From contig NC_087380.1 in assembly GCF_963675165.1 (NCBI RefSeq), positions 2,161,803 to 2,225,802 on the forward strand: 64,000 nucleotides of DNA, in the 5' to 3' direction. The translations under genes were made by a program, and so were the position numbers. The DNA comes from Halichondria panicea. Its lineage: Eukaryota; Porifera; Demospongiae; Suberitida; Halichondriidae. Shown piece by piece: positions 665-64,000 of the stretch. The notes below the pieces were generated by a model. The model was not told the origin of the DNA, ran no database searches, and saw only the letters and a list, made by a program, of their open reading frames with translations. Numbering within the stretch: the stretch's first letter is position 1; every line of letters starts with the position of its first letter.

Positions 665-1043
665 ACATGACCTACCACCAGTGTCGCTAAAGGGTGTGGT
701 CAGTACTGGTGAGATACAATCATACGAGATAATGGAAATGGGTCACGAATACGAGGAAGTGTCCAAGTTCCAACGAGCCGTTGGTGGAACACCACCCTTA
801 CATACAAGTGGCTCCGAAAGCAAGTATGTTATAAAAACTGAGTCATCACCACCCACTCCACCCACTCCACTCACTCCACAACCCTCACAAGCGACTAACG
901 CTACTGGAAACGATACTGAGTTTACAGCGTGCGTTGCTTACAGCAGTGCACGACCACCCACAGTCGCCCCCCACATCCCACCAGCTTATGAACTAATACC
1001 CAATCCCCTGTATGCTACTGTTGACTATTTGCATATTGTATAA
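665..1043 (+). CDS. Gene 0: terminal exon of a CCP/Ig receptor, tyrosine-rich cytoplasmic tail
   Basis: This is a single 3' exon whose upstream part lies outside the window. It starts after a pyrimidine-rich acceptor (cctcag) with one base completing a Lys codon, then reads HDLPPVSLKGVVSTGE, exactly like the last exons of genes A (10369) and C (31482). The tail carries several tyrosines: YEIM, EYEEV (resembling the pYEEI ligand of Src-family SH2 domains), AYELI, LYATV and a final VDYLHI, which fits the ITIM consensus (V/I/L/S)xYxx(I/L/V). A Pro/Thr-rich spacer separates the groups. Stop TAA is at 1041. It is the only copy here keeping the distal tyrosine cluster; in A and C the frame is changed just before it. 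Homology of the exon is clear; signalling through SH2 proteins is inference. Confidence 0.8.
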
Positions 1044-1288
1044 TCTTGTCTAATGTTTTTGCTTGCATGCATTTCATTTCATTTTACATGGCATTGTCAT
1101 CAATTTTACGCATCCTTGCTATTTGCATGGACTCTACCCAACAACTGTGGATTATCATGCCATGTCGTTGAATGTGGTGGTTATTAGCCGCTAAGAACTC
1201 ATAGCCTCATCTACCATTTGAAAAGCCGTTCTGGTGACAAAAAGTAAATGTGTGGCCTGGTGGCAGAGGAAGATAGCCAGTGTCAATT

Positions 1289-3099: not shown

Positions 3100-6000
3100 A
3101 TGAAGAAGTTACAAGGTGACTGTGTCTCTTGGCTGGTCCTTTTGATTGGAGTTGCTCAGCTCCTACTAGTGTGTGGAGAGGGTATGTTAACTTATGACCT
3201 CTGCCAGCAATATTCACTATTGATTTCATCCACGATCTCCTTCCAGTTGTGTGCCTGTCTCTCCCTCCCCTGAACAATGGAACAGTCTCATACAGCGACT
3301 TAACACTGGGTCTGAACACTATGGCCACCTACACCTGTATCCCTGGCTACACTCTCAATGGAAATAGTACCAGGACTTGTGGGAATGTTGGAGAGTGGAG
3401 TGGGTTTTCTCCATATTGTCAGCGTAAGTGGAACTGTTTGTGTACAGTACATCCAGTCTAGAGACTAGAAGACCAATATAATTATAGTTGTACTGTATCT
3501 CAAGATTGGAAGAAATTGTGCTGATACCGTAAAAGAATAAGCTACAACATAGATCTAGAGCACTAAAGTGCAAACCCCTGGCATGATTATAAAGAAACCA
3601 GATAGTCAGTGGCGTGTAAAATGGGGGCTTTGGGGGCTTGAGCACCCCCCTGTCCTCCCAGACAACCATGAAACTAATCCTATCACTCATGCAGTAGTTA
3701 GCTATAGCTAGCTAACTGTGCAGCTCCAAAGGTAGAGTAAGTCGCCAAACTCCGTCAGACATCAAAGTGCGTCAGGTAAAAGGGCGTGTAACGCACAAAC
3801 AAAACAAGACTGAGTCAAACTAATTACACACACTAACAGATGGCCATGGGCCTATTATCCAGCGAAAACTTAAATAGGCCAAGTCGCTTCCAGTCAGAAC
3901 AGTGATAACTTGAAAAAAACCACCGAATTTTTCGATTTTTGTCAGAATGTACCGATCGCCGTTTTTGCCAAACTACACAGCTAGAGCTAACTGACACAAG
4001 CTGAGTACAATCTAGATAGAGTGCAGTACAGAGTGGAGCAATTCCCAGAATCAGGCGACCCTGCAAAGCAGAGCTACACTTGTTTCTTTGTGAGGTTGTA
4101 AAGTGCTGAGTCAGCAATATTCTAGCTATAAGCGCTAATGGTATATAGCGCTTATAACTTTAGGCGCTATTATACTAGCGCTTATAGCCAGAATATTGCT
4201 GACTCAGCACTTTACAACCTCACAAAGAAACAAGTGTAGCTCTGCTTTGCAGGGTCGCCTGATTCTGGGAATTGCTCCACTCTGTACTGCACTCTATCTA
4301 AATTGTACTCAGCTTGTGTCAGTTAGTTCTAGCTGTGTAGTTTTTCAAAAACGGCGATCGGTACGTTCTGACAAAAATCGAAAAATTCGGTGGTTTTTTT
4401 CAAGTTATCACTGCTCGGACTGGAAGCGACCTGGCCTATCTAAGTTTTCGCTGGATAATAGGCCCATGGCCATCTGTTAGTGTGTGTAATTAGTTTGACT
4501 CAGTCTTGTTTTGTTTGTGCGTTACACGCCCTTTTACCTGATGCACTTTGATGTCTGACGGAGTTCGACGACTTACTCTACGTACGTGCAGCCATAGATA
4601 CTGTACACTCCGTGGATGTGAAACGTAGGTAGTATACGGGTAGATTACGGAGTATTCGTGTTCACTCACTGCAACGGCACCCAGCTGCAGAAATGGACAC
4701 TTTTAGTGTTGTTTTTCTTGCACAGCTGCGCACTTGTGGCTTCAGTTGAGGAGAAGGCTTGCTGTACTCGTAGGTGGGAGGTAAGTCTATCATAGAGCAT
4801 GTATATTGAGCCTACATTATTAGTGGATAGCCTTTTGGAACTCATTTTTGTCTGTAACTTACTAGGTGACAAGTTTGTGGTTAGGCGATCTTTGGTTGGG
4901 TTTATGGTTGGAACATTTCGCTTTGCTTTCCTGTTAGTCTATGAAGTGAAGTACTGGGAGAATGTGTTCAGCACTTAAGGAAATGTATAAGGCTAGCAGA
5001 AAACTGAATGATAGGTCAAAAATAGGTGTTCAACAGTACCTATCTTGTGGTTAGGCAATCTTGCCAACAAAAAGCTCCATCACTTAAATGATGTGGTCAT
5101 TCAATAATATAGATGTCCTTATACCAGGAGAATCTATTTTGACCCTCAGTAAATGTTTTGTTATTTCAGGAAAGCGTGTCTTTTTGTGGTGAACATGTTT
5201 ACTCATACAAATGTACTGTATGATGATAATGCATACATGATCGTACAACAGCGGCCTGAGTAAATTATTATTACTAACATACTTTTTTAATTTAGGTAAT
5301 GCTCTATCACCAAAGGAAGCGGAAAGGAGCATAATTATTCCCTGATGCAAGACTAACAAACAAGTGTACGAGCACAAGTAGCGATAAGACGAAGAAGAAT
5401 CCTCCTTCAACTTTAAATCAGTTTTAGTGGTCCATTTAGTTGTCTATTACTAAGTCTATCTCCGTGCATGGATGCCTGCCTATATAATATTCTGTGTGCA
5501 TACATGCTGTGCTATATATACAATGTCATCACAAAAATTAAGTCAGCAGTGTACATGTAGCTAGATCAGGTTCCAATATGATTTCTGCATTTCCACTTTC
5601 ATTCATGAACATCTCTCTTGGCTCTCCCTGCGCAGAGAATCAGTTAGCACTGGAAGAACTTGGACTGGGAGCTTCAGTTATCCTATCACTCACACGTAGT
5701 TACTGTTATTATTGTATCCATGCAGTAGATTCCGTATACTATAGGGAATTTCGGATACTCGGTCCGTGTCATCCGTTGCAATGAGTGTTTCAGGACTTTT
5801 GGTAGTGGGCGGAAGTGTTTCACATCCACGGAGTGTACAGTATCTATGGTGCAGCTTTCTATCTCGATTACAAGTCATGACCACGCCCAATTGAGCATGC
5901 GCAATCAGCATTGCCATATTCCAATGTTGTTATGTAATGCATAATAGCTGATCAAGATCCTCTGCACTCTCCCAGTCACCTCTTGCTCCACTGAGAGATT

Positions 6001-9000
6001 TTGAGAAGCAATGACTAACACTAGAGTGACTGGACATCCCCATTGCAGTGGTTGACCAGTTTACTAGGATGTACCCCAGAAGAATAGTGATTGGAGATCC
6101 TACAAGATGACTGACTCATACTTGATACTCTTATTTAATATCACGCTATGCATGTAAAAGACGCGCCGCAATAAATGTGGGGGCGTAAAATCGCGCACTA
6201 TGCACGCGGCGGCCCTATTTTTTTCTGTGCTCTTGAGCACCTCCCTGCTTCAATCTCTAGAAACGCCCCTGATATAGTGATATATAAATGCAGTGCATAT
6301 GTGATGCAATCTGAGAAAAGAGTTTACATATGTTTCAAACAATATGTATAGACATAGGACTGACTGATCCTCCCACCTGCTCTGACCTAACTAATCCGAC
6401 CAATGGAATGATCAACTACAATAATATGGGGACTGTTAGTATGAGACCAGTGGGAACTGTGGCCACCTTCACCTGTGACACTGGCTACATTCTCGATGGA
6501 AACCCCACTAGGACTTGTGGGAGTGATGGAGTGTGGAGTGTGTCAGCTCCTATTTGTCTGCGTAAGTGAAATGGGATTTCGTACAATACAATTTTTTTAA
6601 ATTCTAATTACCCATCTAGAAAAACTGATTTGTTCTGACCTCACTCTCACCAATGGATACGTTACCTATGGCAGTGATAGATCTACTGACAACAGACCAG
6701 TGAACACTGTAGCTTTCTTCCACTGTAATCCTGGCTACACCCTCAATCTCACTGGAGGGAGCTTGCTCAGGGTCTGTATGAGTAGAGGGATCTGGAGTGG
6801 GTCAACTCCAACTTGTCAATGTGAGCTCAGTAAACTCTATATATTCAAAGTTTCAAACAATTGGGTATAGACATAGGACTGACTGATCCTCCACCCACCA
6901 CCTGTTCTGACCTGACTAATCCAACCAATGGAATGATTGGCTACAATATGGGGACTAGTAGTCAGAGACCACTGGATACTATGGCCATCTATACCTGTGA
7001 TACTGGCTACACTCTCAATCATGATACCACACGCAGGGTCTGTGTGAGTGGAGGGATCTGGACTGGGTCAGCTCCAACCTGTCAAAGTTAGTAGTGAAGT
7101 ATATTATTACATGTACAATCATTCAATGAGCAAGTCATTAATAACCTATACAGCCATTGAGTGTCCTCCTCTACCAACCATTACCAATGGTATGATCTCC
7201 TACTCTCCTGATGTCACCCCTGACTATGACCTGGGAACTGAGGCAACCTACACTTGTGAGGCTGGGTTCTATCTTGAGGGTAATGAGGTACGTGTGTGTA
7301 TGGATGATGATGGAATGGACGCCATTGGAGTGTAGAGTGATCAGGAGCCAAGCTGTGTTCGTAAGTTATCAGCGAAAGTGTAATTCATTTGTACTGTACG
7401 AACCGGAAGAACATACATACACATTATTATAGTGCTTGTCAAAGAGAGTTTTGTAGCTCCATAAAAAGTTATATACATGTATGTAGGACCGACTGCTGCT
7501 CCATCCACCACATGCTCTGACCTGACTAAACCAACCAATGGAATGATTGCCTACAATATCGAGACTAATAGTCTGAGACCAGTGGACACTGTGGCCACCT
7601 ACACCTGTGACACTGGCTACACTCTCAATGGAGACACTACCAGGGCTTGTGAGAGTGGTGGAATGTGGAGTGGGTCAGCTCCAGTGTGTCAGTGTAAGTG
7701 GAATGAATTTTCCGTTTTTCATGTTATGTATGGATTCTCATACAGAGATACTCTGTTCCGACCTCACTCTCATCAATGGAAACATTGTCTACAATGTTGG
7801 ATCCCCTGACAACAGACTTATCTTCTCTACAGCTACCTACAGCTGCAATCCTGGCTACACTATCACTGGAGGGAGCACTACTAGGGTCTGTGTGAGTGGA
7901 GGGATCTGGACTGGGTCAGCTCCAACCTGTCAAAGTTAGTAGCAACATTACATGTACAATCATTCAATGAGCAAGTCATTAATAACCTATACAGCTATTG
8001 AGTGTCCTCCTCTACCGACCATTACCAATGGTATGATCTCCTACTCTCCTGATGTCACCCCTGACTATGACCTGGGAACTGAGGCAACCTACACTTGTGA
8101 GGCTGGGTTCTATCTTGAGGGTAATGAGGTACGAGTGTGTATGGATGATGATGGAATGGACGCCATTGGAGGGTGGAGTGGTCGGGAGCCAAGCTGTGTC
8201 CGTAAGTTGTACTCTGTATAATTATTAGTGTTGGTTGATGTGTTTTCTTGTCATGTGGTATTATTACTCTTTATAATTATTATCACAGTCATCACTTGTC
8301 CCCGTCTCCCTGATCATACCCACACTTCAATAACCTACTCTACTGACACCACACCACCTTTCACCATTGGAACACGAGCAATGTACACCATCAACTGTCC
8401 TGAGGGCATGGAGAGAGACGGAGGAGATGATGTGAGGACTTGTACTAGTGATGGCAATAGTATCATAGGGGTGTGGAATGGATCTGCTCCAACCTGTACA
8501 GGTAATTATCTTATACATGTGTACGACAAATGATTGCTTAAGTTTGCTTTTTCCTATAGCTCAGAAGGTGTATCTATCTCATGGGAACACACACTACTAT
8601 GCCAACAACACTGCAGTCATCATTTCAACCATTATGACAACAAATGACACATCCTTGACCTGTCACACTGACTCAACCACCTGCTGTAGAGGTGTTGACA
8701 ATCCAGTGAGATCTAATGGTTTCGGAGAATGGTTTTTTCCTATTGGAGAGAGTATTGCTCGGAACAGTGTCACTGGTGATGGGTTTTATTGGACAAGATT
8801 CTATCAAGCTATCAGACTGTATCGTCAAGGTGATACCCAGACTCCACTGGGAACCTACTGCTGTAGAATACCTTACAATACTGGAGAGATGAGGACATTC
8901 TGTGCTAGTCTTGTTGGTGAATATCTGCTTAGCATGCATGGCATCATTCTAGGCATCATTCTAGGCTATAAAATTATAGTGGTAATATAGAGTCGTGTGG

Positions 9001-10708
9001 CTGAAAACATGGCTTATATATTATTCAGTGTAAATAATTGATAATCCTTCTCAGCAACACAATGTGACCCACTGATAAATACTCCTGATAATGGAAATGT
9101 GATTTACTCAAATCAATTGGACGATGGCAAGTACACCTTTGGAACCGTAGCCACATACACCTGCTCTCCCGGCTATGGTCTGAGAAGTATAGAGAATCGA
9201 ACATGCATCACTGTTGATGATGGAGGTACAGTCGGGATATTCAGTGGAAGTGAACCAACTTGTGATCGTGAGTTAGCTGAATAAATGAGGGATTAGTTGA
9301 CAAACTTTGTAATATTAACGGCAATTACTTTCTTCTACAGCCATTGAGTGTCCTCCTCTACCGACTATTACCAATGGCATGATCTCCTACTCTCCTGATG
9401 TCACCCCTGACTATGACCTGGGAACTAATGCAACCTACACTTGTGAGGCTGGGTTCTATCTTGAGGATAATGGTATACGAATGTGTGTTGATGATAATAG
9501 AATGGACGCCATTGGAGTGTGGAGTGGTCGGGAGGCAAGCTGTGTCTGTAAGTTATCAGCAGAAGCAGTTACAGCATAGGAATATTTGCCACTATTATTT
9601 TTAGCTAGTATACTGCATGTCCCTCTGTACGTCCTTGATCATAATTATACGTAAGTTGCAAAATGTCAGAACAATTGATTGACTAACTGTTTATCATTTT
9701 CCCAGCCGTCCCCCCTCCTGTACGTTCAGTGTTATTCCAGCTCAGACTCACCAACATCAACAACTGTCCTGACTGGGTGGTGAGTGCTAAGAATTTCCTA
9801 AAGCAAACAGTACTGTTTCTCTCTCTACAGGACCAGGATGGGAGGATAGAAGCTGTGATGAGCACATTTGCTGCCGAGGTGGAGAGTCACTGTGGGTGTG
9901 GTTTCTCAAGCATGGTCATGACTGCCCCTCTCTTCCGCTGCTTCCCTGGGTCGGACAGAGCTGTTACATTCCGAGCCACTCTAACCGATTCCAGGCTCCT
10001 CACTCCCATACAAGACTGGATACAAAGCAATGGATTCATTCCCATTCAGAATGTACTGATTGAAATGGACAAGTCTTGTCCAGTACAGATATTGAGCCAT
10101 ACAGACACAGAGTGCACCAATCAGCCTACAGCTGCAGGGAGCAGTGACATAGCCGCTGTGGTCGGTGGAGTGGTGGGAGTGATCATTGTGGTTGTGGTGG
10201 GCGTTGTCATCATAGTGATTGCTGTACTGTTGTTCAAAAGCAGGAGAGAGAATTCGAAGCTGACCGTCCACAGTAGAACAAAGTGAGTCAATAAATTTAA
10301 ATTTTTTGTTACTCTACCGTAAAAAGATTCTGAATTCTCCATACAATAATCTTACATTCCTCCCCCAGGCATGACCTACCACCACCAGTATCGCTAAAGG
10401 GTGTGGTCAGTACTGGTGAGACACAACCATACGAGATGATTGAAATGGGTCACGAATACGAGGAAGTGTCCAAGTTCCAACAGGCCGTCGGTGGAGAGTA
10501 TGACATCATTGGAGCACCCTCACAGACAACTGGCTCCGAGAGCAAGACTCCTATAAAGACTGAGTTGCTACTGCCCACTCCACCCACTCCACCCACTCCA
10601 CAACCCTCACAAGCGACTAAAGCTCCCGGAAATGATATTGAGTTTACAGAGTGCGTTGCTTACAGCACGACCACCCACAGTCGCCCCCCACAGTCCACAA
10701 GCTTGTGA
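3100..10708 (+). CDS. Gene A: CCP/Ig single-pass receptor with short tyrosine tail (one in-frame stop)
   Basis: Sixteen exons can be joined: 3100-3181, 3247-3423, 6352-6561 (acceptor may be 6358), 6620-6820, 6871-7086, 7154-7360, 7487-7693, 7746-7934, 7995-8201, 8289-8501, 8560-8916, 9055-9267, 9341-9547, 9706-9779, 9831-10282, 10369-10708. All donors are GT and acceptors AG, and the total is 1184 codons with the frame kept to TGA at 10706. Order: signal peptide [15 protein letters not shown]... (1-28), nine CCP (each with CxxL, YxC, GY, C, W and final C), Ig (about 637-755, with CHTD, WFFPIGE, GTYCC), two CCP, SEA-like domain (about 896-1010), TM (about 1027-1053), tail of about 130 residues. 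CCP5 (7154-7360) has TAG at 7333 where other copies have Trp TGG; the exon is phase 1-1 and could be skipped. Unlike B, C and E it lacks an N-terminal Ig exon. The 2.9-kb intron after CCP1 is filled with transposons. A membrane receptor role is well supported; the ligand is unknown. Confidence 0.8.
3732..4581. repeat. Giant palindrome, arms about 400 bp
   Basis: Bases 3732-4130 and 4190-4581 are near-perfect reverse complements about a centre at 4156, where gcgctata-type short palindromes occur. The two 94-residue mirror reading frames (3833-4117 minus, 4196-4480 plus) are the same arm read twice and are not genes. It is in the long intron after CCP1 of gene A. Confidence 0.9.
4588..5853. repeat. 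Long inverted-repeat element adjoining the palindrome
   Basis: Bases 4588-4624 (gcagccatagatactgtaca...) recur in reverse complement at about 5817-5853, and weaker matches continue inward (actgcaacgg with ccgttgcaat). The 1.2-kb interior has no recognised gene. Together with 3732-4581 and smaller debris near 6160-6290 it accounts for most of the intron between CCP1 and CCP2 of gene A. Confidence 0.6.
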
Positions 10709-11782: not shown

Positions 11783-14700
11783 ATGAAAAAGCTACAAGGT
11801 GACTGTGTCTCTTGGCTGGTCCTGTTCACTGGAGTTGTTCAGCTCCTACTAGTGTGTGGAGAGGGTATGTTTTAACTGACCTGCTATAAATGAACATAGA
11901 CTGTACATAATGATATGCATACAGGAGTGTACTTATCTCTGGGATCAACCAACATCACCACTAACAACACTGAGATCCTCATCACTGATATTGGAGATGA
12001 TGTTGGGGATGGTCGTCCTTCTCTCATCTGTCACACTGACCTTGTGGCCTGTTGTACACCCAGTGAGACAATGGCAAAAGGTATTGGACTTTGGCGCTAT
12101 CCAAATGGAACTCGTGTTCCTGGTGAATCAGGAGCATCTCGTCCGTATGTGTCATTAAGAAATGGTCAATCCATCAAACTGGCTCGTAGAGAGAGTTTGT
12201 TGTTCTCTCCTCCCCTGAGTCCAACTGGTTCCTACTGTTGTACTATACCAACTAATGAAGGAGTGATGATGTTCTGTGCCAACCTGGGTGAGTGGTTCTG
12301 TAATCTTGGATTCCATCCACAATCTGATTCTGTTTCCAGTTGTGTGCCTGTCTCTCCCTGCCCTGAACAATGGAATAGTTTCATACAGCCACTTAACACT
12401 GGGTCTGAACACTGTGGCCATCTACACCTGTGACACTGGCTACACTCTCAATGGAGGCACCACCAGGACTTGTGGGAGTGATGGAGTGTGGAGTGGGTCA
12501 GATCTATCTTGTCTTCGTAAGTGAATATTCACTTTTGTGCTGTTTGAATGTTTTTTGTGTGTTTCATATATTCTGAGATAGCAGCCTGTTCTGACCTCAC
12601 TCTCACCAATGGAGACATTGTCTACACTGATGGATCCCCTGACAACAGACCTATCGGCTCTAGAGCTACTTACAGCTGCAATCTTGGCTACACTATCACA
12701 AGAGGGAGCACCACCAGGACCTGTGTGAGTGGAGGGAGATGGGATGGATCACCTTCAACTTGTCAAAGTGAGTTCTGTAACTCGTACACAGTTTGTGTTT
12801 CAAATAATTATGTATAGACACAAGACCGACTGTTGCTCCACCCACAACGTGCTCTGACCTGACTAATCCGACCAGGGGAATGACTGCTTACAATATGGGG
12901 ACTGCTAGTCCAAGACCAGTGGACACTGTGGCCACCTACACCTGTGCCACTGGGTACACTCTCAATGGAGTCACCACCAGAACTTGTGGGAGTGATGGAG
13001 TGTGGAGTGGGTCATCTCCTGTGTGTCAGCGTAAGTGGAATGGAATGTGGACATTCTTGTTTTAGTGTAGTACCCTCTTCTCTACAGGTATCGGCTTTGA
13101 CTTACCCTCACTGACCAATGGGATGATCTCCTACAATGGTGGATCCACTAACAACAGACCAGTGGGCACTGTGGCCATCTTCAGCTGTAACACTGGATAT
13201 ACTCTCAATGAAGACGCTACTAAGACTTGTGGGAATGATGGAATGTGGAGTGGATCATCTCCTGTGTGTCAGCGTAAGTGGAATGGAATGTGGACATTCT
13301 GTTTTTGAGTGTACCCTTCTCTACAGGTATCTGCTTTCACTTACCCTTACTGACCAATGGGATGATCTCCTACAATGGTGCTGTATCCACTAACAACAGA
13401 CCAGTGGGCACTGTGGCCATCTTCAGCTGTGACACTGGATATACTCTCAATGAAGACACCACTAAGATTTGTGGGAATGATGGAATATGGAGTGGATCAG
13501 ATCCAGTGTGTCAGCATAAGTGGAATGGAATGTGGACATTATTTTTTTGAGTGTACCCTTCTCTACAGGTATCTGCTTTGACTTACCCTTACTGACCAAT
13601 GGGATGATCTCCTACAATGGTGCTGGATTCACTAACAACAGACCAGTGGACACTGTGGCCATCTTCAGCTGTGACACTGGATACACTCTCAATGAAGACA
13701 CTACTACCAGAACTTGTGGGAATGATGGAACATGGAGTGGGTTAGATCCAACATGTGAAGGTCATAATTATTAGCTGAGTGGTAGTACATGTACCGTGAC
13801 TCCTGAGCTTATTACTACAGCCATTGAGTGTTCTCCTCTACCGACCATTACCAATGGCATGATCTCCTACTCTCCTGATGTCACCTCTGACTATGACCTG
13901 GGAACCGAGGCAACCTACACTTGTGAGGCTGGATTCTATCTTGAGGGTAATGAGGTACGAGTGTGTATGGATGATGATGGAATAGACACCATTGTAGTGT
14001 GGAGTGGTCAGGAACCAAGCTGTGTCCGTAAGTTATCAGTGAAAGTGTGTAGGTACTGTACAACCCGAACATGCATGTTTGGTCATATGCAATTAATTAT
14101 CACAGCCATTATTTGTCCTCATCTCCTTGTTCCTACCCACACTTCAATATCTTACCTTCCTCGTACCAGTTCCTTTTCTCCTATGGAACACAAACAACTC
14201 CAATAATAAATATATTGTCCGCAGGTATCACATGTTCTGCTCTCATTAATGTTATGAATGGGACCATCAATTACCTTAGTGGTACTACTGCACCATATGA
14301 CTATGGAACAACAGCTACTTATCAATGCAACTATGGACATATGTTAACAACTGGAGACAGTGAGAGGACCTGTACTGGTGATAGTAGTACTCCTAGTGGT
14401 CAGTGGGATGGTGCTGCTCCTCAATGTCCACGTACGTTCTATTATTGCATTATCGTATCACATGATAATGTACACGCAACATAGCTGTGGACTGTGGGAC
14501 TCCTCTGTCTATTACCAATGGATCTCCTGGGATACCAACAACCTCAACATTGGACAGTGACCTACAGCTGTAATGATGGCTATGCACTCTTTGGGATTGC
14601 TACAAGTACTTGTTAGGCAAATGCAACCTGGAGCAGACCACCAGAATGCAGAGGTGTGTGCTTTAATACATTAATTACTGTTTGCATTCACAAGTTTAGC

Positions 14701-15849: not shown

Positions 15850-16347
15850 GTGAATGATGATAAGTATATATAAATGACAGCTTATGTTTAGAACCAAATT
15901 AATATTGTATAGATGATGTAGTAGCAAGATCTTAGAGGTGATATTTTTGTAACCTGTTGAGGAAGTAGAATGGTATAATTAGAACTATCTGGACATTTTT
16001 CGGGCTAATGGAACAGTTTATAGGAATGTGTAGTGGGTTGGTTCCAGTTTGTATGCATATTCGCTGTGTGTTTTTGTGCATTGATGTTTTCACATTGCAT
16101 CAACTCATGCACTTTGTTGTGATTACAGATAAGGTACACACTCAGGCTAATCTGACATCTGGCAACCTTATAGACGGTGCCTCTAATCAATTCATGTGCA
16201 CGATTCAAGGACCTATTGTAGTAACATACTGAATTGACTCATACCTTATGCTTTTGGTGAGCAATAGTCTTGTGAGGAATGCTCCCCAAGTCGTCTAACA
16301 ACCCCCTGAGTCCAACTGGGTCCTACGTTCAGTTGTAGACATAGACA

Positions 16348-16407
16348 TAGCCTCAATTCCAGGCCGATTAAAATACGTATTTTAAAATCGGCCTTGAATC
16401 GAGGCTA
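16348..16407. repeat. 60-bp near-perfect palindromic MITE
   Basis: It reads tagcctcaattccaggccg...cggccttgaatcgaggcta. The terminal motif tagcctcgattccag is shared with the element at 19794-20536 and with the spacer of the palindrome near 30065, so it marks one element family. Confidence 0.8.
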
Positions 16408-16522
16408 ATATAGACATACCGGTACCAACACACACACGACAATATGAAAACGTCGTTATGCAAAACTAAATGTAATGATCTTTATCAAAAATGAACATTG
16501 TTTCATTATTATTATAATAATT

Positions 16523-16924: not shown

Positions 16925-16969
16925 TACTTTATTACTGTACGTATTATGCTAAAAATAATTATTCCGAGT

Positions 16970-17056
16970 CAGGGCCTACAGTCACAGCCCACAAGCTTAT
17001 GAAATACCCAACCCCCTGTATCATTATGCAACTGTTGACTATGTATGTATGTGCAT
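16970..17056 (+). pseudogene. Relic of the distal tyrosine-tail exon
   Basis: The stretch acaagcttatgaaatacccaa followed by ccccctgtat...actgttgactatg matches the end of the gene 0 tail (about 975-1032), the part encoding AYELIPNPLYATVDY. It lies after gene B, which has no such tail, so a short-tail receptor end once lay here. Confidence 0.6.
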
Positions 17057-18829: not shown

Positions 18830-31806
<12,977 letters not shown>

Positions 31807-50583: not shown

Positions 50584-50617
<34 letters not shown>

Positions 50618-53600
50618 TGTGCACACGCACACGCAGCAACTTATGCGCATTAAAGTAAACAATGTCTCACTACCCCCCCCCCACAAACACACACGCACAC
50701 GCACACGCAGCAACTTATGCATTAAAGTAACTCACTACCCACACTTAATACCTTACTACCTCCCCCTCACACACATGCAGCAATGGGATTGGTCGCACTG
50801 GAGTGTTCATCACCCTGCATGCTCAACTGGAGCGACTCAAGATTGAGGGTGTGGTCGATCTGTTCCAGTTCATCAAGTTTGCTCGCAAACAGAGGGAGGG
50901 GCTCGTTAGCAGTCCTGTAAGTCATTAACAATACAAGTCTATTGGTCTACTGTATTCTCTATTATCTATTCTATGCTGTATAGATCCAATGTTTAGCTAC
51001 TCTGTTTATTTTGAAAAAGTACGTGTGTGCTTTCAGCTTTGTACATTCATTTATTATCTTTAAATATGAAGTAATCACTGTACATCCACCCACTGTGCAG
51101 GAGATGTATGCTTTCTGTCACGAGGCACTGGCTGACTATGTGGACAGTTTTGAAACTTATGCCAACTTCAAAGAACTGGTTTAATTATAACAGTAACTTC
51201 ACAAAAACATTTGATTTTAGATTATACTGCTGCTTTTATAGTTTTTAGATTATTGTACAGACTCAGATTATACCAATAGCAAAACTGTGAATGTGTTTAC
51301 CACTGACTTTTATGATACTGAATTATTGCACTTGCCGTGGTGACAGTGTGTTCTTTAATGAATCCTAATGTGTGTTGTTACCAATTCTCTCCACACCCAC
51401 CATATTACAGGTTTCTCCAGCAGCGTGTTTGGCATAACGATGAGATCAATGCTCGTATTGAGCGTATTGAGGCTGACTCTAGTGGAGTGGAGGAGGACGA
51501 GAAACTCTACGCCACCTACGCCATGCTACACACTTATCGCAATGAGTGAGTGGGGGAGGGGTGGTGGGTACCGTACCTGTACGTCTAGTTATTTTTAAAT
51601 CATGAATTATTAAGACTTGCTTAGGTAATTAGATTGTTGGATTGGACGATTGCATTTACTGGAATTAATCCTTACTAAATTACTTAGTTTAGCACTGCGC
51701 AAAAAGCATACATGGATGGTAGCTAGTCATTTGAAGTATATATAGTGAAGTTGATGTACTTGGATTGCTAGATACTGCCATAGATATTTGGTACCACAGG
51801 TATTAAGTATTCAGTTTCTATGACACATTGTAACTGTGCATGTATCTAATTTTACAGTACATGGGAATATAATTTATGCTAGTAAGAGCTTGCATGAGCA
51901 GATGTTGCATGTTGTCCTTGCTACATCACATGATGTGCATTGTCTTCTTGCAAAAACATTTATGTGTGCCTTTACTTGCATAAACTTTCATTGTCTGACC
52001 TCCTATCCGACTACCAGCGGATATCCCATGGAGCTAAGGAGCGTTGTGTGAAAAGACCACCCCCTCTGAGATAGGACGACCCTCGGAGAGTAGGAGGGGC
52101 CAGACCAGAGACCACCATCACTACCCCATAGGTACATGTGTGTGAGGTGGTACTGAGAAGGTTGAAAGATGTAGCTATAATGTGTATAGTTGTACGGTAC
52201 TACCATAATTGCCTACATGCTAAAACTAAAGCCTTTAACTTTGAGTGTATGCATGGGTGCACGTACGTACATGTGCAGCAAATTGCTGTACTGTGACATT
52301 GCTTTTATGGGTACTTCCTATAGAGCCTGTACATACTGTTGTGTTTGAATGACAGTGATTTGCTATTATATCTGTCCCCCTGCAATCTCAACAGTTGATC
52401 AGCTACAAGGATCTGAAGGTGTCACATGACCTGTCGAACTTTTTAGAGTCAGCCTGGATGAACCCAAGCATCTCGCAATCGTGAGTCAACCAACATCTAT
52501 CTTTAGTTAACTATTCTGTCAGTATAACGATCCCCAATTGACAGTTTTAACAAAACTTTTTATGCAGCAAAAGTACAGTGTATACATAACCCTAAACCTT
52601 TCCTATAGCTCTTATATTGAACAGTATATGCACTGTACTGTATTTTCACTTATTTTCTTTCTTCTTCAACAGAAGGTGTGCCATCACTACTGGCCCAAGT
52701 TCCAAGGAGAAGCAGGCACTTATGGTGACTTTACTGTCACTCAGCAGACATTTGACGCTTATGGTGACTACGTTGTCAGGAAGCTATCTGTTGCCATGGA
52801 AGCTTCTGATGAGCCCCCTCTGTAGTGACACAGTTCCACTTCACCCACTGGACCGAGAAGGACCCCCCACAGAGCCCTGCCGCTATACTGGACGTTGTGC
52901 AGGAGGTGAATGCTGTTCAGATGGCCTCAGGCAACAAGCCCATTGTTGTCATGTGCAAGTAAGTGAATGTGTGTGTGTGTGTATGCTTTGATTGCATTAC
53001 AATAAACAAGTATCTCAATGTCTCACTACCCCCCCCCACACACACACGCAGCAACTTATGCATTGATGTCTCACTACTACCTTACTATACCTCCCCCTCA
53101 CACACATGCAGCAATGGGATTGGTCGCACTGGAATGTTCATCACCCTGCATACTCAACTGGAGCGACTCAAGATTGAGGGTGTGATCGATGTGTTTCAGT
53201 TCATCAAGTTTGCTCGCAAACAGAGGGAGGGACTCGTTAGCAGTCCTGTAAGTCATTAAGTCTATTACAATACAAGTCTATTGGAAGCTACATTTTACTG
53301 TATTCTACTGTATTCTATTCTCCATTCTATGCTGTATAGATCCAATGTTTAACTACTCCGTTTATTTTAAAAGTACCTGTGTGCTTTGTACATTCATTTA
53401 GATATTATCTTTCAATATGAAGTAATCACCGTGCATCCCCCACTGTGCAGGAGATGTATGCTTTCTGTCACGAGGCACTGGCTGACTATGTGGACAGTTT
53501 TGAAACTTATGCCAACTTCAAAGAACTGGTTTAATTAACATTAACTCACAGAAACATTTGATTTTATATTATACTGCTGCTTTTATAGTTTTTAGATTGT

Positions 53601-56419: not shown

Positions 56420-59400
56420 ATGAAGAAGTTACAAAGTGTCTCTTGGCTGGTCCTTTTAACTGGAGCTGCTCAGCTCCTACTAGTGTGTGGACAAAGTTCA
56501 CCTGGTATGTTTAAATTTCATGACCTCTGCCAGCCAGTTTATATCAATTGCATACATGCAGGAGTGTACCTATCTCTGGGATCAACCAACATCATCACTA
56601 ACAATACTGAGATCCTCATCACTACTATTGGAGAGGGTGCTCCGGGTGATCTTCCCCTTCTCATCTGTCACACTGATCTAGTGGCCTGTTGTAGAAAATC
56701 TGATACAATAGCAAAGACAAATCCAACGGGAGATTGGCACTATCCAAATGGAATTCCTATTCTTGTTGGAAATAAAGCACCGCCAGATGCATTGTTTTAT
56801 ATACAGAGAAATAAACAAGTGGTTAGACTGCATCGTAATGAGAGTATCAACCCTCAGACTGGTTCCTACTGTTGTACTATACCTACTATTGCAAAGGAAA
56901 TGATCCTCTGTGCCAACCTTGGTGAGTGAACCATGCAGTACCGAGTTCATAAAAGTAATAATAAAGTAATAATGTGGTCTACGCAATGGGTAGAATTCAA
57001 TAAAGTATAATTTCCCCTTTCATATTTCAATGCAGTCGTGTGTCTGTCCCTCCCTCCCCTGACCAATGGAATGATATCCTACTCTGACCCAACACTGGGT
57101 GTGGGGAGTGTGGCCACCTACAGCTGTGAGGCCGGATATATGATAAATGATAACAGTACTAGCACGACATGTGAAGAGGGTGGAGAGTGGAGTCAATCCA
57201 GTCAACCAAACTGCGTTGGTGAGTGCCCTTGTCTTGTTTTATATTTGCTATGCTGCATGCTGTTAACTCTAATTTATGGCCCGGGCCCTTCGATGATTTG
57301 TATATATAATTATTGCACAGTACCTATAGATTAATATATTTCTGCAGCCATTCTAACTGCAATGGTCTGTACTGAATTGATGGATCTAGTCAACGGAACT
57401 ATCACGTATAACATGGATCCCATGGGCCTAAGACCAGTAGTGGGCACTGTGGCCACCTACACCTGTAACCCTGGCTACACTCTCACTGGAGACAACACTA
57501 CGATTTGTGAGAGTGGGGGGAGCTGGAGCAGTTCAGCTCAAACTTGTGAAGGTTGGTTAACTATAGCTATGCTGTAGTACATGTATACATGCAGTCGCAT
57601 AACTGTTCTCAATAAATCAGGCTATTTTCTCCTCAGTGATTGTGTGTCCTCTTCTACCGGCCATTACCAATGGCACCATCTACTACTATCCTGATGTCAG
57701 TACTCTTTACGTTGACCTGGGAACTTATGCAGCCTATATTTGTGAGGCTGGATTCAATATCATTAATCAGGTACGAATGTGTATGGAAGATGATGGATTG
57801 GACGCCATTGGAATGTGGAGTGGCCAGGAACCAAGCTGTGTCTGTAAGTTATCAGCGAAAGTGTATCTTGTATATGTACTGTACGAATCCGAATATGTAT
57901 AGAGTATGGTCATGCATGCATGTGCACATTACACAGTCATCACTTGTCCCTCTCTTCTCCCTGATAATTCTCACACCTCAATAATCTACCTTCATGACAA
58001 TACCACACCACCTTTCCCCTATGGAACACGAGCGAATTACACCATCGACTGCCCTGAGGGCATGGAGAGGGACGGAGAAGACGATGTGAGGACTTGTATT
58101 CGTAATGGCAGTAGTGCAGTGGGTATTTGGAATGGAACTGCTCCAACCTGTACAGGTACGTATATAGGTCAACCAACACCACAGTTATATAGCCAAAAAG
58201 ATCGATCACGTGTTATAATGTTGGTGCATTCGAATGGGCTCAAGGTTAATGTGGTACGAGGTGAACGCTACACAGAATAAATTAACATTATCTTGGTTAT
58301 AGTTATAGGTGTGTTCTATAAATCAATGTTTCGGTCACTTTTCTTCAAGTTTCAACCTCATTATTATGCTTCGGTGTTTGGATGCGGTGAGGTATACAGT
58401 ATATAGTGTGTTGTTTGTGTGTGTGTCTGTGTGTATGTACTGCTATATATAGCTGCTCAATGATAAATAAAGTGCAAGTAAGAGCTTTCATAGGCCTCTT
58501 TAAAATCTTTTTTTACTTGGATTTGAATTTGTAGATTTGCAAAACAATGGAGTTATGGCTACTTTGAAGGCCACTGCAGTATTTTCAGACTCGTGTGTAG
58601 CAAAATCTGTTGATATAACTTACGTTGTAGCTATTCTACTTATAGGAGTTAGCACACTAATTAGCTGCAATAGTGGGGAAAGAGCTGCAGACCTGCACTG
58701 TTTCAAGAATGCAGAAGCCCCATTAATAAATGTACTGGCAACCTTCTTAGCAACAATCAGGGTCAATCCTTTCCCACTCTCTTGCACAATTCTTGCATGT
58801 AAGTAGCTAAAGTATTTAGCTGTGCTGCTATCATTCCACTGAGGCATCATCACCCACAGCGCTGTAATTTTATACAGCCACAGATACAATGGACTGTACT
58901 GATCTGATGGATCCTGTCAATGGAGGTATCACTTACGATATTGGCACCACTGGTAACAGACCAGTGAACACTGTGGCCACGTACGTCTGTGATACTGGCT
59001 ACATGCTCGAGGAAGACGCCAACACCACTAGAACTTGTGAGAGTGCGGGGAGATGGAATGGGTCAGAACCAGAACCATCCTGTATAGGTTAGAAACACAT
59101 ACAACACCAGCTGCGTGAAATTAGTATGCTAAATATTGCTCTGTCCTGCAGCAAAACAGTGTAAAGAATTGCCTCTGCTGAAAAATGGAACAATCATGTA
59201 CAATGCTAGTACTCCTTATTACCTGGATACCACAGCAAAGTACAAGTGTAACAATGGGTATTTCCTGGAGGGACAATTTCAGAGGAACTGCACTGCTGGA
59301 GAGGTGGACAATATCAGTGGGGTGTGGACAGGATACGTACCAACATGTGTCCGTAAGTTGATTTTTGTGGCTTAAATTGCCGTATTATGTACATGTACAT

Positions 59401-62400
59401 TCAGCGAGGTATACGGTAGTGTGTTTTTGTGTGTGTGTGTGACGTGTGTGTCTGTCTCTCTGTCTGTCTGTCTGTGTGTGTAGACTGCTAAAGCTGCTCA
59501 AGGATCAATCAAGTGCAAGTAATAGGCTTCTAGTGATGTTTTCTTGGATTTTAATTTGTGGATTTGCAAAATAATGCTTTGTTCTTGAGTTATGCCTAGT
59601 TTTGCTTACTTAGAGTGCTATTGCAGCCTTTTCAGAAGAGTGCGTAGCAAAACTTGTTCACCGAGTGTTGCTACTCTACTTAGTAGTTAGCTCTGCATTA
59701 GAATACTAGCTATTAGTAGCTGCAAGAGTGAGAAGAGAGCTGCAAGGCTCTGTACTATAGATGCAGCTAGACTTGAACTTTTGGCATCAATCGTTTTTAA
59801 TAACAATTATGATCGATCATTACCCACTCTTTGTGATTCTGGCTCGGATTCTGCCTGCATTCAGCAAAATGTTCATCATGATAAAATAATAATGTGTGTA
59901 GCTTTGGCATTTCCACCGAGGCATTAGCACCCGCGGTGCTTTCATTGTTCTCAGGAATACGATGTGACCCGCTGATGACTGCTTCTGATAATGGAAATGT
60001 TACTTACTCAAATCAATTGGACGATGACAAGTACATCTTTGGCACAGTGGCCACCTACACCTGCTCTCATGGTTATGGTCTGAGCAGTACTGAGAGTCGA
60101 ACATGTATCACTGATAATGGTGGTGGTGGGGCAATCGGGAGATTCAGTGGGAATGAACCAAACTGCGATCGTGAGTTGATTTTACTGATTAATCTAACAA
60201 TTAATTCCTGTATTGTCCATAGGTATCACGTGTTCTGCTCTCCCAAGCATTACAAATGGGTCCATCAGTTACCCTAGTGGTACTACTGCACCATATGACT
60301 ATGAAACAACAGGTAATTATCAGTGCAACGATGGACATGTGTTAACAAGTGGAGACAGTGAAAGGACTTGTACTGGTGATGGTAGCACTTCTAGTGGTCA
60401 GTGGAGTGGTAATGCCCCCAGATGTCCACGTATGTTTTAAGTGTTTTGTTCGTGTCACATGATAATGTACACACACAGCTGTGGACTGTGGGACTCCTCT
60501 GTCTATTAACAATGGATCTCCTGGGATACCAACAACCACAACATTCACAGGAACAGTGACCTACAGCTGTGTTACTGGATATTGGATATCTCCAAGAGTC
60601 ACCACAGCAACGGCTACCTGTAAGGCTGACAGGACCTGGGTACCTCTACCAACTTGTCAATGTACGTGAATTTCTACCCGACTTGTGCATTGACATATCG
60701 TTTTCACTCACTCAGTTGTGGATTGTGGCTCTCTTCCCACCATTATGAATGCATCTCCTGGAACACCCACCAGAACAACCTACCTAGGGACAGTTACCTA
60801 CACCTGTGTCAGTGGATATGAAGTCTCCAATGGAGTTACCACAGCAATGGCAATCTGTCAGGACAACGGAAACTGGAGACCTCTACCAACTTGTACAAGT
60901 ATGGTTCAGGGATTTTTTAACTTCAGAATTGTACGTCATACTGAATTACGTACATACAGTTGTGAACTGTGGTGATCCTCCCACTATTCTCAATGGATCT
61001 CCTGGTACACCATCCAGCTCAACATTTGGAGGGACAGTGTCTTACACATGTAATAGCAATAGATATCACGTGTCAGATCCAGCCACTGTGACTTGTGAGG
61101 CTAGTGGGAGTTGGAGCACAAGACCAATTTGCTCAGGTCTGTGAAACATATTTAATAATTAATTTTTGTGGTGACATGATTGTTAATAGCCATCTGCAAT
61201 GACCATCAAATTGAAAATGGTGACATCAACTATGATTCTAATGCCACACCGAGAGTAGAGGGAGCCATTGCCTTTTACTTGTGTGTGTCTGGTTACCAGC
61301 TGTCTGGTGTGAGATTTAGGATCTGTGCGGACAATGGAAATAGAATGGGTGGTGTATGGACTGGATCAATACCAAGCTGTACAGGTATAAAAACAAAGAA
61401 ATCTCCATTCCCTATTGTATGTACATTTCTAATGTTGCAGCAATCTGCCTTGATCTCACCCTTGCCCATGGAGTGATCAGCTACAGTCCATCTACTACTC
61501 TCAGACTGGAGGATACTGTGGCTACACACAGCTGTGGTGAGGGGCACGGACTGTTTCCTAGTGTGAGAACAAGAACATGTCAGCCCGACAGGACGTGGAG
61601 TGGAGAGGAAATCACTTGCAAACGTAAAGATTGGGTATATCGTAGATGCTATACACTAATGTATGTATTGTCCGCAGGTATCACGTGTTCTCCTCTCCCT
61701 AATGTTACGAATGGGACCATTAATTACCCTAGTGGTACTACTGCACCATATAACTATGAAATAACAGCTACGTATCAATGCAACCACGGACATATGTTAA
61801 CAAGTGGAGGAGACAGAGTGAGGACCTGTACTGGTGATGGTAGTACTCCTAGCGGTCAGTGGAGTGGTACTGCTCTTCAATGTCCACGTATGTTATAATA
61901 TTGTATTGGTCGTATCACATGATAATGTACACACACAGCTATGGACTGTGAGACTCCTCTGTCTATTACCAATGGATCTCCTGGGATACCAACAGCCACA
62001 ACATTCACAGGGACAGTGACCTACAGCTGTGATGATGGCTATGCACTCTTTGGGATTGCTACAAGTACTTGCCAGGCAAATGCAACCTGGAGCAGACAAC
62101 CGAAATGCAGAGGTGTGTACTTACATTAACTCACAAGTTTAGTCCTGCAGAGGTACGTAGTTTACATTATTGGGCATAATAAAATTATACAACACAGGTA
62201 TCACTCTTACTGGTATCCAATCTGGTGTACCCATCTTAATTGGAGGTTCTGTTACCATCAACTGCACAACTATATTTTCTGCTGACTCAATAATATTGCT
62301 CCAAGATAACCACCCTCTTTATGGAACTCGTCAGTCCTCCACCATCTTGACGCATAACATCCCTCTTGTGAACGATAGCATCCATAGAAACACGTTCAAA

Positions 62401-64000
62401 TGTGTGGCCAATTTCTCAGAAACTCCAGACACTGCCTTTGACAATGTCACTACTATTATTGGCAGTAAGTTACAGTTTTAGCACTCATGATGATTAAACT
62501 TCACTCTATAGTACCTGATCAACCTATCAACGCTAGTATCAGCCCATTAATATATTCACTTCCATTAATCGGAGAGCCATACACTGTGACTTGCAATGTG
62601 TCTAAGTTGCCTGGACTAACTCGTACACCAACTGCTCAGTGGATACAAGTTGCCACGGGGACTGGAAGACTAATCTCGCCCACTCCTAGTCAAGCTACTC
62701 TCAAATTTTCTCTACTGAGAACCTCAGATGCTGGTACATATCGTTGTCAGGGTAACCTCAATACCACTATTTACCCTGACCTCCTTTCTGACAACAGTGA
62801 TTTCGACTTAAATGTTCAAAGTAAGTAATCCCCATAGCCCTAATCATCCGTCAATGTTATCATTTTACAGTACCAAAACCAGCAGTGACAATCACAAGGT
62901 CACCCTCCACCTTCTACTTGTTTGCTAACCTCAGTGTGGTAACATTTACATGTCAAGTGTCCATACATACAAACATTGATACTCCTGTCAGTTTGAGCTT
63001 GACTTGGACTCGTGAAATTTATAGTAATGAAGATGATACAACCACTGAAGTGATCATGGTGAATAATACAACCAAAAATATTGAGAGGAGATGGACCTTT
63101 GATGATTTTAGTTCAAAAGACAAGAAAGTAACTTGCAATGGAACAATAAACTCAGCTAGCAGTTTTATTCAAGGCAATAGCATCACAATTGAAGACATGT
63201 TATCTGTTGTTGGTGAGTTGCCGTCTTCATAACCTATAATTATGATAAAGCTAATACACTATTCAGGTGTGTTTCTGATGTTCAACGGCAGTGTACTGGA
63301 CAACACGACCTCTGTACCAGCGAGGGATGTAAATGTCATACAGTGTCACTCTGACAAGACAGATACATTTGATGAAGACCAACATGGATGGAGTTTCCCT
63401 AATGGCACCAAGATTACTAACATCAGCACACTGGCTGTTGCAACACGGGAGGGAGGACACCTGGCACTCACTCGAGTGGGAAACAGTTCCCTGCCAGCTG
63501 GAAAGTATTGTTGCAAGGCTCAGGACGCCAGGGAAACCAGCCACACCCTCTGTGTGCATGTAAACCCAGGTGAGCTAGAGGGTTGAGGTAGATGTTATGT
63601 CATCCGAGCCAGTAGCCATCTAATTGCTCTGAGATTCTTGGGAATGAATGTGAGGCACATGTGTAACCAGCTCCTAGATGGAACAACTAGCGATCTATAC
63701 CTCTAGTTACATAGCCTGGCCTGGCCTACTCTCTATTTTTATTACCCACAGAACCAAGTTCCAGTAGCACTGCCATGGTGGGAGAGATAGCTGCTGCAAT
63801 TGTCATTCTGGTTGTTGCTCTACTGATTATCGGAGCAGTTATTCTCATTGTTGTCAGGTATATAATTAAGTCATTAATTAAACTTTTATCTCTGTAAAGA
63901 ATGCACAACTTAAATAACTATATTAATGGATGTACTATACTTCTTTTAGAGCTCATAGATCTGGAAAGCACACTTTCTCTGGCCTTGCGTTTGGTGGAGG
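56420..64000 (+). CDS. Gene E: CCP/Ig receptor, D paralogue, probable RPTP (3' end outside window)
   Basis: Exons: signal peptide 56420-56504, Ig 56562-56921, fifteen CCP (57036-57218, 57348-57551, 57637-57843, 57937-58155, 58878-59087, 59152-59352, 59955-60170, 60223-60429, 60479-60661, 60716-60898, 60960-61136, 61190-61384, 61441-61623, 61678-61887, 61939-62112), four Ig (62198-62464, 62512-62820, 62871-63212, 63267-63569), TM 63752-63857, juxtamembrane from 63950 to the edge. Every exon is open, every splice site canonical, and phases agree; about 1590 residues are in view. Signal peptide 1-28; Ig with CHTD, WHYPNG and GSYCC; TM GEIAAAIVILVVALLIIGAV. The four Ig exons, TM and the juxtamembrane start ([15 protein letters not shown]) closely match gene D, so a tandem phosphatase beyond the edge is expected. 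That is inference. Confidence 0.87.
58370..58867. repeat. Mobile element copy 1 in gene E
   Basis: It starts near cggtgaggtatacagtatat, carries a GT-rich tract (58410-58437), then gctgctcaatgataaataaa and sequence shared with 59490-59700 and, in reverse, 20595-21737. It ends just before the acceptor of the CCP exon 58878. The 89-residue frame 58537-58806 inside it is not supported as a gene. Confidence 0.6.
59400..59940. repeat. Mobile element copy 2 in gene E
   Basis: It begins gcgaggtatacggtagtgtg with GT and CTGT tracts (59420-59480), continues as in copy 1 (aagctgctcaaggatcaatc) and ends ccaccgaggcattagcaccc a few bases before the acceptor of the CCP exon 59955. Confidence 0.6.

What the first reader, a model, noticed from the sequence alone, without database searches (positions are those of the whole stretch)
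665..64000. Tandem receptor array with a common CCP/Ig ectodomain and interchangeable intracellular outputs
Six consecutive genes share exon families, but the membrane-proximal part differs: SEA-like/TM/short tyrosine tail (0, A, C), Eph-like Cys-rich plus FN3 (B), four Ig plus TM plus tandem phosphatase (D, and apparently E). Short tails rich in SH2-type tyrosine motifs beside phosphatases recall paired activating/inhibitory immune receptors. Together with tandem exon gain, decay and copy-number differences this suggests a diversifying recognition locus (immune or allorecognition). Structure is seen; role is inference.
Basis: partly seen in the sequence, partly recalled or inferred. Interest (0 to 1): 0.88.

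Follow-up and report, generated by a model that had tools for sequence, protein, structure and literature searches.

The report
Receptor gene array with swapped tails
A long row of related cell-surface receptor genes in an unidentified animal genome (perhaps a sponge) shares the same kind of outer half but ends inside the cell in different ways, and some genes are visibly stitched together from two kinds; this looks like a fast-changing recognition system, although no function was tested.

Summary
The window (C4:2161803-2225802 of a 131-Mb assembly) lies inside a one-strand array of at least 34 receptor genes over about 450 kb. Signal peptide, Ig-like and CCP/Sushi exons are shared. Main endings: a tyrosine-rich tail (S), a four-Ig stalk with tandem phosphatase (P) and, outside the window, a P-type stalk with an S-type tail (H). 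In 3 of 5 H genes read, the join lies inside one exon, within 5-7 bases; the other 2 also keep the P-type TM exon. TM exons of both types end in phase 2, so tails fit either in frame. Five-prime ends do not sort by ending, the two F genes excepted. Half a megabase away an unrelated receptor family shows the same break at the TM exon (tyrosine tail versus kinase). Omega: CCP/Ig exons 0.42-0.72, phosphatase exons 0.14-0.36 (one at 0.80 on four changes). Corrections: 'SEA-like' is unsupported; canonical ITIMs are rare; gene C is frameshifted; gene B has no TM that I could find. A recognition role is plausible but untested; species, population variation and expression are unknown. Verdict: new variant of the paired/clustered receptor kind.

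The parts
665..1043 (+). Gene 0: last exon, tyrosine-rich tail (the rest of gene 0 lies upstream of the window)
   Evidence: TAIL profile and exon model; sequence
3100..10708 (+). Gene A (type S): signal peptide, CCP exons, one Ig-like exon, membrane-proximal module, TM, tail
9706..10282 (+).
   Evidence: Pfam, PDB and AF2 negative
10369..10708 (+). Gene A tyrosine-rich tail exon, starts in phase 2
11783..17073 (+). Gene B (type F): signal peptide, Ig-like, CCP (with a 242-bp tandem array at 12913-13740), Eph-like Cys-rich (14726-14893), FN3 (15002-15351), what looks by eye like parts of a second FN3 (no Pfam match), tail remnant at 16983-17073; no TM found
18830..31806 (+). Gene C (type S, frameshifted in the membrane-proximal exon near 31136): Ig-like, 9 related CCP exons in a 277-bp tandem array (23025-25404), second Ig-like, tail
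35969..50916 (+). Gene D (type P): signal peptide, CCP and Ig-like exons, four-Ig stalk, TM, PTP D1 and D2
45298..46677 (+). Gene D four-Ig stalk (IG1, IG2, IG3, IGJ), modelled exons phase 1-1
46789..46888 (+). Gene D TM exon (phase 1 in, phase 2 out)
   Evidence: sequence
47684..49003 (+). Gene D PTP D1 exons found by profile (WPDHG and [10 protein letters not shown] intact)
49360..50916 (+). Gene D PTP D2 exons (CNNGIGR kept, WTE in place of WPD)
52673..53247 (+). Extra partial copy of the D2 second half, with a frame break
56420..64000 (+). Gene E (type P), 5-prime part; phosphatase exons follow in L029 (window-relative 64674-67448)
62198..63569 (+). Gene E four-Ig stalk
63752..63857 (+). 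Gene E TM exon (phase 1 in, phase 2 out)
   Evidence: sequence

Best explanation
The locus is a birth-and-death array of cell-surface recognition receptors built on a modular exon grammar. Phase 1-1 cassettes (Ig-like, CCP, stalk Ig) make an ectodomain of variable length. A TM exon enters in phase 1 and leaves in phase 2. Phase-2 output cassettes follow: a tyrosine-rich tail or a tandem phosphatase. Unequal exchange between tandem neighbours adds and removes CCP exons and has moved outputs between ectodomains; the H genes are fossil joins of a P-type stalk and an S-type output. SHOWN: the exon grammar, the array, the joins, the mixing of 5-prime ends across S, H and P, the D1 phosphatase motifs, and the conserved YEEV/YxxPhi tail tyrosines. 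INFERRED: a tail, once phosphorylated, recruits SH2 proteins (Src-type by its YEEV motif), while the P members remove phosphotyrosine, so receptors with similar ectodomains would push the same pathway in opposite directions; and the ligands are fast-changing, either microbial or allogeneic.
For: Array: 25 tail exons on C4 1.882-2.193 Mb, 9 genes with D1 and D2 phosphatase exons on 2.095-2.331 Mb plus a truncated one near 1.998 Mb, 16 stalk IG3 exons, all on 1.968-2.315 Mb. In the 304 kb read there are 29 units: 14 S, 5 H, 5 P, 2 F, 3 fragments; CCP exons per unit run from 0 (1 unit, a fragment) to 28. H joins: in 3 of 5 H genes alignment to P genes ends and to S genes begins 5-7 nt apart, in frame, inside one exon; the other 2 keep the P-type TM exon and then S-type TM and tail. 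Phase fit in A, D and E. The 5-prime-end tree of 28 rows needs 12 label changes against a shuffled mean of 13.2, as low in 34 of 200. Conflicting trees of neighbouring stalk exons: H_1973285 pairs with P_2197771 in IG2 (100/99) and with two other P genes in IG3 (86/89). Omega on independent pairs: CCP 0.68 (0.62-0.76, 102 pairs), IGN 0.62, IG1 0.72, tail 0.52, membrane-proximal module 0.33; phosphatase exons PTPb 0.22, PTPe 0.14, PTPa 0.18, PTPc 0.36. Tails: YEE[V/I] 19 of 19, paired YxxPhi 15 of 19. Same design in an unrelated family: DNA 87.6% identical into the TM-coding part, then tyrosine-rich exons in one and kinase exons downstream of the other.
Against: No module has omega above 1. One phosphatase exon (PTPd) gave 0.80, on 2 pairs and 4 changes only, and IGJ is at 0.42. 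H as one clade is not rejected (AU p 0.0915; 0.0552 with introns), so the exchange may have been one old event plus gene conversion. The tail tree is mostly unresolved (13 of 16 inner branches open). The two F genes do share a 5-prime end. Tail copies are close paralogues, so motif counts are not independent. 3 of 29 units are fragments, gene C is frameshifted, and gene B has no TM that I could find. No expression, ligand, splice or population data. The species is not identified.
Confidence: 0.5

Rival explanations
1. A lineage-specific expansion of adhesion or developmental receptors (LAR/RPTP-like), with no role in non-self recognition; the tails and phosphatases tune cell adhesion.
For: The closest solved relatives of the D1 exon are RPTP alpha, S and LAR; the IGN model's best matches are NCAM2 and antibody Ig domains; omega stays below 1.
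Against: Very variable CCP number, homogenised tandem exons, mosaic outputs and many copies are unusual for a fixed developmental receptor.
Confidence: 0.25
2. Mostly neutral turnover: tandem duplication and gene conversion in a repeat-rich region shuffle exons, many copies are decaying, and the mixed outputs carry no signalling meaning.
For: Gene C frameshift, gene B without a TM that I could find, 3 fragments, truncated P gene at 1995815, extra D2 copy in D; ectodomain omega of 0.42-0.72 is fairly relaxed.
Against: Catalytic D1 motifs intact in the 4 P genes in which both domains were read, four of five phosphatase exons at omega 0.14-0.36, CCP cysteines and tryptophan nearly unchanged (dN 0-0.06 of mean dS), YEEV kept in 19 of 19 tails.
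Confidence: 0.2
3. The allorecognition locus itself: polymorphic ligand/receptor genes that decide fusion or rejection.
For: Architecture close to the Botryllus fester co-receptors (V-type Ig, sushi, C2 Ig, TM, tyrosine motifs; PMC12065747, passages read).
Against: No polymorphism or fusion data; strict ITIM in 2 of 19 tails and hemITAM in none; many other receptor, phosphatase and kinase clusters lie in the same genome, so nothing singles this one out.
Confidence: 0.15
4. Assembly artefact: mosaic genes made by collapsing or misjoining near-identical repeats.
For: Highly repetitive tandem region.
Against: Three H genes share the same join yet differ in sequence (stalk end branches of 0.05-0.12 changes per site), and a second family shows the same design; the contig is 7.8 Mb.
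Confidence: 0.03

Closest known systems
Botryllus schlosseri fester co-receptors (FcoR), fuhc locus (PMC12065747; passages read)
   Same: Clustered type-I receptors with signal peptide, V-type Ig, sushi, further Ig domains, TM and a tail with tyrosine motifs; the review reports some loci that switch motif by alternative splicing.
   Different: Here many CCP exons, strict ITIM in only 2 of 19 tails and no hemITAM, and the alternative output is a receptor phosphatase in a separate gene. Homology was not tested.
Vertebrate paired receptors (KIR, LILR, SIRP, teleost LITR; from general knowledge)
   Same: Linked genes with similar ectodomains and different signalling ends; mosaic genes from unequal exchange.
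   Different: No ITIM/ITAM division of labour; the phosphatase is built in rather than recruited; CCP-rich ectodomain.
Tandem-domain receptor tyrosine phosphatases (RPTP alpha, LAR)
   Same: Ig ectodomain (LAR, recalled) and TM; D1 with WPD and HCSAGVGR; D2 with altered WPD (the D2 comparison with LAR/alpha is recalled).
   Different: CCP/Ig-like variable N-terminal half shared with phosphatase-less receptors; a tandem array of 9 or more copies.
Hydractinia Alr complex (mentioned in PMC12065747; primary paper not read, recalled)
   Same: Clustered IgSF genes with tyrosine-motif tails.
   Different: No CCP and no phosphatase members, as far as I recall.

Membership tests
Paired activating/inhibitory receptors | Linked genes with near-common ectodomain and different signalling ends | tested here: met
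   Domain map, H joins, 5-prime-end tree
Paired activating/inhibitory receptors | Inhibitory members carry canonical ITIM | tested here: not met
   Strict ITIM in 2 of 19 tails, shuffle mean 3.3; ITSM 0 of 19
Paired activating/inhibitory receptors | Activating members use an ITAM, own or by adaptor | tested here: inconclusive
   Strict ITAM 1 of 19; a relaxed YxxPhi pair in 15 of 19; adaptor pairing not tested
Paired activating/inhibitory receptors | Opposite signals on the same ligand | not testable with these tools
   needs expression and binding assays
Botryllus FcoR-like | Signal peptide, V-type Ig, sushi, C2-type Ig, TM | tested here: inconclusive
   Signal-peptide, IGN, CCP and stalk Ig exons occur in H and P genes, though IGN is not found in every one; IGN is Ig-like by an AF2 model of pLDDT 73 with weak Foldseek hits, V-type not shown
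Botryllus FcoR-like | ITIM or hemITAM or core YxxI/L/V motif | tested here: met
   Core motif in 19 of 19 (shuffle mean 9.9); hemITAM 0 of 19; ITIM 2 of 19
Botryllus FcoR-like | Common descent by sequence | not tested
   No Botryllus sequence available
Receptor tyrosine phosphatase, tandem type | TM, active-type D1 (WPD, HCxxGxxR), second PTP domain | tested here: met
   D1 and D2 motifs in D, E, the next gene and 2090003; TM exon read in D and E; activity not tested
SEA domain | Match to SEA profile or fold | tested here: not met
   Pfam none at E<=10; PDB only MS2 coat protein at E 0.025 and 0.79; AF2 pLDDT 34 from one sequence, so the fold itself stays open
CCP/Sushi | Pfam Sushi with the conserved cysteines and tryptophan | tested here: met
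   column profile
Eph receptor (gene B) | Ephrin-binding domain, Cys-rich, two FN3, TM, kinase | tested here: not met
   Cys-rich at cut-off and one FN3 present; 10 ORFs of 15409-18050 have no Pfam match at E<=0.1, kinase included; one search lists no kinase here but scored only 129 of 1749 candidates; no TM seen by eye; ephrin-binding domain not searched

The most novel reading that the evidence does not exclude
An early-branching animal runs a general output-exchange system: several unrelated receptor families on one chromosome share a phase-1 ectodomain / phase-2 output grammar, so recombination repeatedly re-wires the same recognition cassettes to a tyrosine tail, a tandem phosphatase or (in a neighbouring family) a tyrosine kinase. 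This would make a paired-receptor logic in which the negative arm is a built-in phosphatase rather than an ITIM.
Probability: 0.3. Interest if true: 0.82.

Novelty: new variant of a known kind. Interest (0 to 1): 0.6.

Why it matters
Paired receptors with opposite outputs are best known from vertebrate leukocytes. An array in which the same recognition exons are attached to a phosphotyrosine tail, to a tandem phosphatase, or (in a neighbour family) to a kinase, with dateable joins, would show how such logic arises by exon recombination. It would also offer a candidate recognition locus in an early-branching animal, if the species guess holds.

Tried and rejected
SEA fold: not supported. ITIM/ITSM/hemITAM reading of the tails: not met. 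Eph-receptor reading of gene B: no kinase in 10 ORFs scanned downstream, no TM seen. Positive selection at module level: not found; my first table binned by dS is biased upward in the lowest bin and was replaced by independent pairs binned by total divergence. Species: not identified. Troponin was not found, but that search is uninformative because no control rang. The only COX1 match is a nuclear fragment read with TGA as W. Assembly-size paper searches gave no usable match. 'Perhaps a sponge' rests on recall plus the many kinase and phosphatase matches. Papers on receptor expansions with sushi, phosphatase or kinase in sponges (listings only): nothing listed describes this array; in PMC8242945 (passages only) sushi and immunoglobulin genes are among those regulated by LPS in Halichondria panicea, and the word phosphatase does not occur in its main text.
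Full report
WHERE IT IS. The window is C4:2161803-2225802 (+) of an unnamed 131.46-Mb assembly in 39 contigs. The species is not identified. A sponge is my recall-based guess, helped by the many kinase and phosphatase matches; it is not a result.

OBSERVATION. I built profiles from exons of the window and searched 304 kb: C4 1860001-2060000, 2090001-2100000 and 2151803-2245802. They gave 472 hits after overlap removal, 0 on the minus strand. The 29 units sort into 14 S (CCP/Ig-like ectodomain, membrane-proximal module, TM, tyrosine tail), 5 H (same kind of ectodomain, four-Ig stalk, S-type TM and tail), 5 P (four-Ig stalk, TM, tandem phosphatase; one, at 1995815, is truncated and lacks the stalk, and another, at 2090003, begins outside the stretch read), 2 F (Eph-like plus FN3) and 3 fragments. 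CCP exons run from 0 (one fragment) to 28 per unit. The window holds the tail of gene 0, A (S), B (F), C (S), D (P) and the front of E (P). It sits where a mostly S/H stretch gives way to consecutive P genes.

SIZE OF THE ARRAY. Counted by me from the listings: tails of this type number 25 on C4 1.882-2.193 Mb, with 7 more distant ones on 0.12-0.23 Mb and one at 0.848 Mb. D1 and D2 phosphatase exons mark 9 genes on 2.095-2.331 Mb, and a remnant lies near 1.998 Mb. The stalk exon IG3 has 16 matches, all on 1.968-2.315 Mb; by position 7 belong to H genes, 8 to P genes and 1 to a fragment. That is at least 34 tail or phosphatase genes in about 450 kb; the part not read is known only from these coordinates. 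Ig-like exons of the IGN type give at least 150 matches (150 of 291 candidates scored), mostly on C4, and phosphatase arrays of other kinds lie on C4 0.33-0.77 and 1.27-1.38 Mb.

DOMAINS. Sushi, fn3, ig and Y_phosphatase are supported by Pfam; Ephrin_rec_like scores 23.1 bits against a cut-off of 23.1. The N-terminal and middle Ig-like exons (IGN) have no meaningful Pfam match. An AF2 model from nine window sequences has pLDDT 73; Foldseek found nothing at E<=0.001, the best being NCAM2 at 1.1e-3, and of the 50 matches listed most name Ig proteins (NCAM, antibodies, Dscam, OPCML) while some titles name only a partner protein; TM-scores by query are 0.35-0.51. So Ig-like is likely, V-type is not shown. 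The 'SEA-like' module finds nothing in Pfam at E<=10, only MS2 coat protein at E 0.025 and 0.79 in PDB sequences, and did not fold (pLDDT 34, one sequence, with a short open intron included).

GRAMMAR. Modelled CCP, IGN and stalk exons leave in phase 1, except the last CCP in genes 0 and C, where the model skipped an exon. The TM exons of A, D and E end in phase 2, and the tail exon of A begins in phase 2. A tail can therefore follow either TM exon in frame.

OUTPUT EXCHANGE. I aligned six 3-prime regions of the upstream stretch to three P and three S references. In the H genes that start at 1973285, 2018762 and 2045367, alignment to P genes ends at the last bases of the IGJ exon and alignment to S genes begins 5-7 nt later, inside the first membrane-proximal S exon, in frame; read by eye, the P splice donor and the S acceptor are gone. 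Loss of two splice sites makes P plus S to H the simpler direction. In the H genes at 1966708 and 1989731 the P similarity runs on through the P-type TM exon, then a scrap of the same IGJ/S junction, then S-type TM and tail, which fits a second round of exchange. The sixth region, the fragment at 2026564, matched P genes only. Trees: H and P stalks are interleaved (3 label changes, shuffled mean 3.2), but one clade of H is not rejected (AU p 0.0915; 0.0552 with introns); exon trees conflict (H_1973285 with P_2197771 in IG2 at 100/99, with two other P genes in IG3 at 86/89); the tail tree has 13 of 16 inner branches open and puts H among S (4 changes, shuffled mean 4.5). Five-prime ends (signal peptide plus 400 bp, 28 rows) need 12 changes of type against a shuffled mean of 13.2, as low in 34 of 200; only the two F genes sit together. 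Thus, F apart, the front of a gene does not predict its ending.

A SECOND FAMILY. In C4 2668001-2687000, beside the kinase matches, ectodomain ORFs at 2679474 and 2683027 are 80% identical in protein and have no Pfam family. Their DNA is 87.6% identical over 1078 columns into the TM-coding part and then parts: the first is followed by tyrosine-rich exons (EAYGV, TYEVV, HYNDP), the second by kinase exons with PK_Tyr_Ser-Thr matches of 6e-17 and 2e-26. That these exons belong to the same genes is inferred from order. No IGN or CCP profile hit was found there; the four weak 'SEA' hits are TM-like stretches. So an unrelated family shows the same break point.

PHOSPHATASES. The D1 exon is closest to RPTP alpha, S and LAR. 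D, E, the next gene and 2090003 keep WPDHG and [10 protein letters not shown] and have WTE in place of WPD in D2; CNNGIGR across an intron was read for D, E and the next gene. D has an extra partial D2 with a frame break.

TAILS. Of 19 tails read, 19 have YEE[V/I], 15 a YxxPhi pair 6-12 apart, 10 YxxM, 2 a strict ITIM (shuffle mean 3.3), 1 a strict ITAM, 0 ITSM, 0 hemITAM. Paralogy makes these counts non-independent. YEEV as a Src-type SH2 site is recalled knowledge.

SELECTION. On greedy independent pairs at 1-20% divergence: CCP 0.68 (0.62-0.76; 102 pairs), IGN 0.62 (9), IG1 0.72 (3), IG2 0.63 (3), IG3 0.57 (5), IGJ 0.42 (4), module 0.33 (5), tail 0.52 (9), signal peptide 0.47 (11), PTPa 0.18 (1), PTPb 0.22 (5), PTPc 0.36 (2), PTPd 0.80 (2; only 4 changes), PTPe 0.14 (2). 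In CCP the cysteines and tryptophan are nearly fixed, while many other columns change at 1.0-1.5 times mean dS. This is relaxed or locally diversifying change; positive selection is not shown. Tandem arrays of 277 bp x 8.7 copies at 94% in gene C and 242 bp x 3.4 copies at 91% in gene B show exon multiplication.

READING. The best-supported account is a modular, recombining family of recognition receptors with exchangeable phosphotyrosine outputs. It resembles paired receptors and the Botryllus FcoRs in logic and layout (PMC12065747, passages read), but it fails the ITIM test and replaces the recruited phosphatase by a built-in one. Ligand, cell type and role are unknown. I found no paper describing this array in the listings; the library holds open-licence papers only.

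Noticed in passing
L034-L035 (C4:2668001-2687000): A second, unrelated receptor family: two paralogues about 88% identical in DNA into the TM-coding part, then one is followed by tyrosine-rich exons and the other by tyrosine-kinase exons.
   Followed up: partly
window 3732-4581: Near-perfect inverted repeat, 406-nt arms, 97% complementary, 38 nt apart: a foldback-like element within gene A.
   Followed up: no
window 29635-30494: Nested inverted repeats (92, 133 and 172 nt arms, 98-99% complementary) in gene C between the CCP exons and the membrane-proximal module.
   Followed up: no
window 16741-16920 and L033 (C1 near 5280527): Similar ORF translations (QYMACCTRAPAITNLLPNDVKL) at both places suggest a dispersed repeat; in gene B it lies between the FN3 part and the tail remnant.
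   Followed up: no
window 1983-2230: (TG)124 microsatellite, 99% matches, between genes 0 and A.
   Followed up: no
L034-L035, C4:2675403-2678235: Long simple-repeat ORFs (TVTTVT and SVTVVT type) that look like one repeat in two orientations, between two receptor genes.
   Followed up: no
C4 0.33-0.77 Mb, 1.27-1.38 Mb; C10 1.70-1.94 Mb; C15 4.0 Mb; C1 15.5-17.4 Mb: Further clusters of phosphatase (C4) and kinase-profile matches in the same genome.
   Followed up: no
C1:5280527-5280718 (L033): Nuclear copy of a COX1 fragment that reads through with TGA as W; no other COX1 match reported.
   Followed up: no
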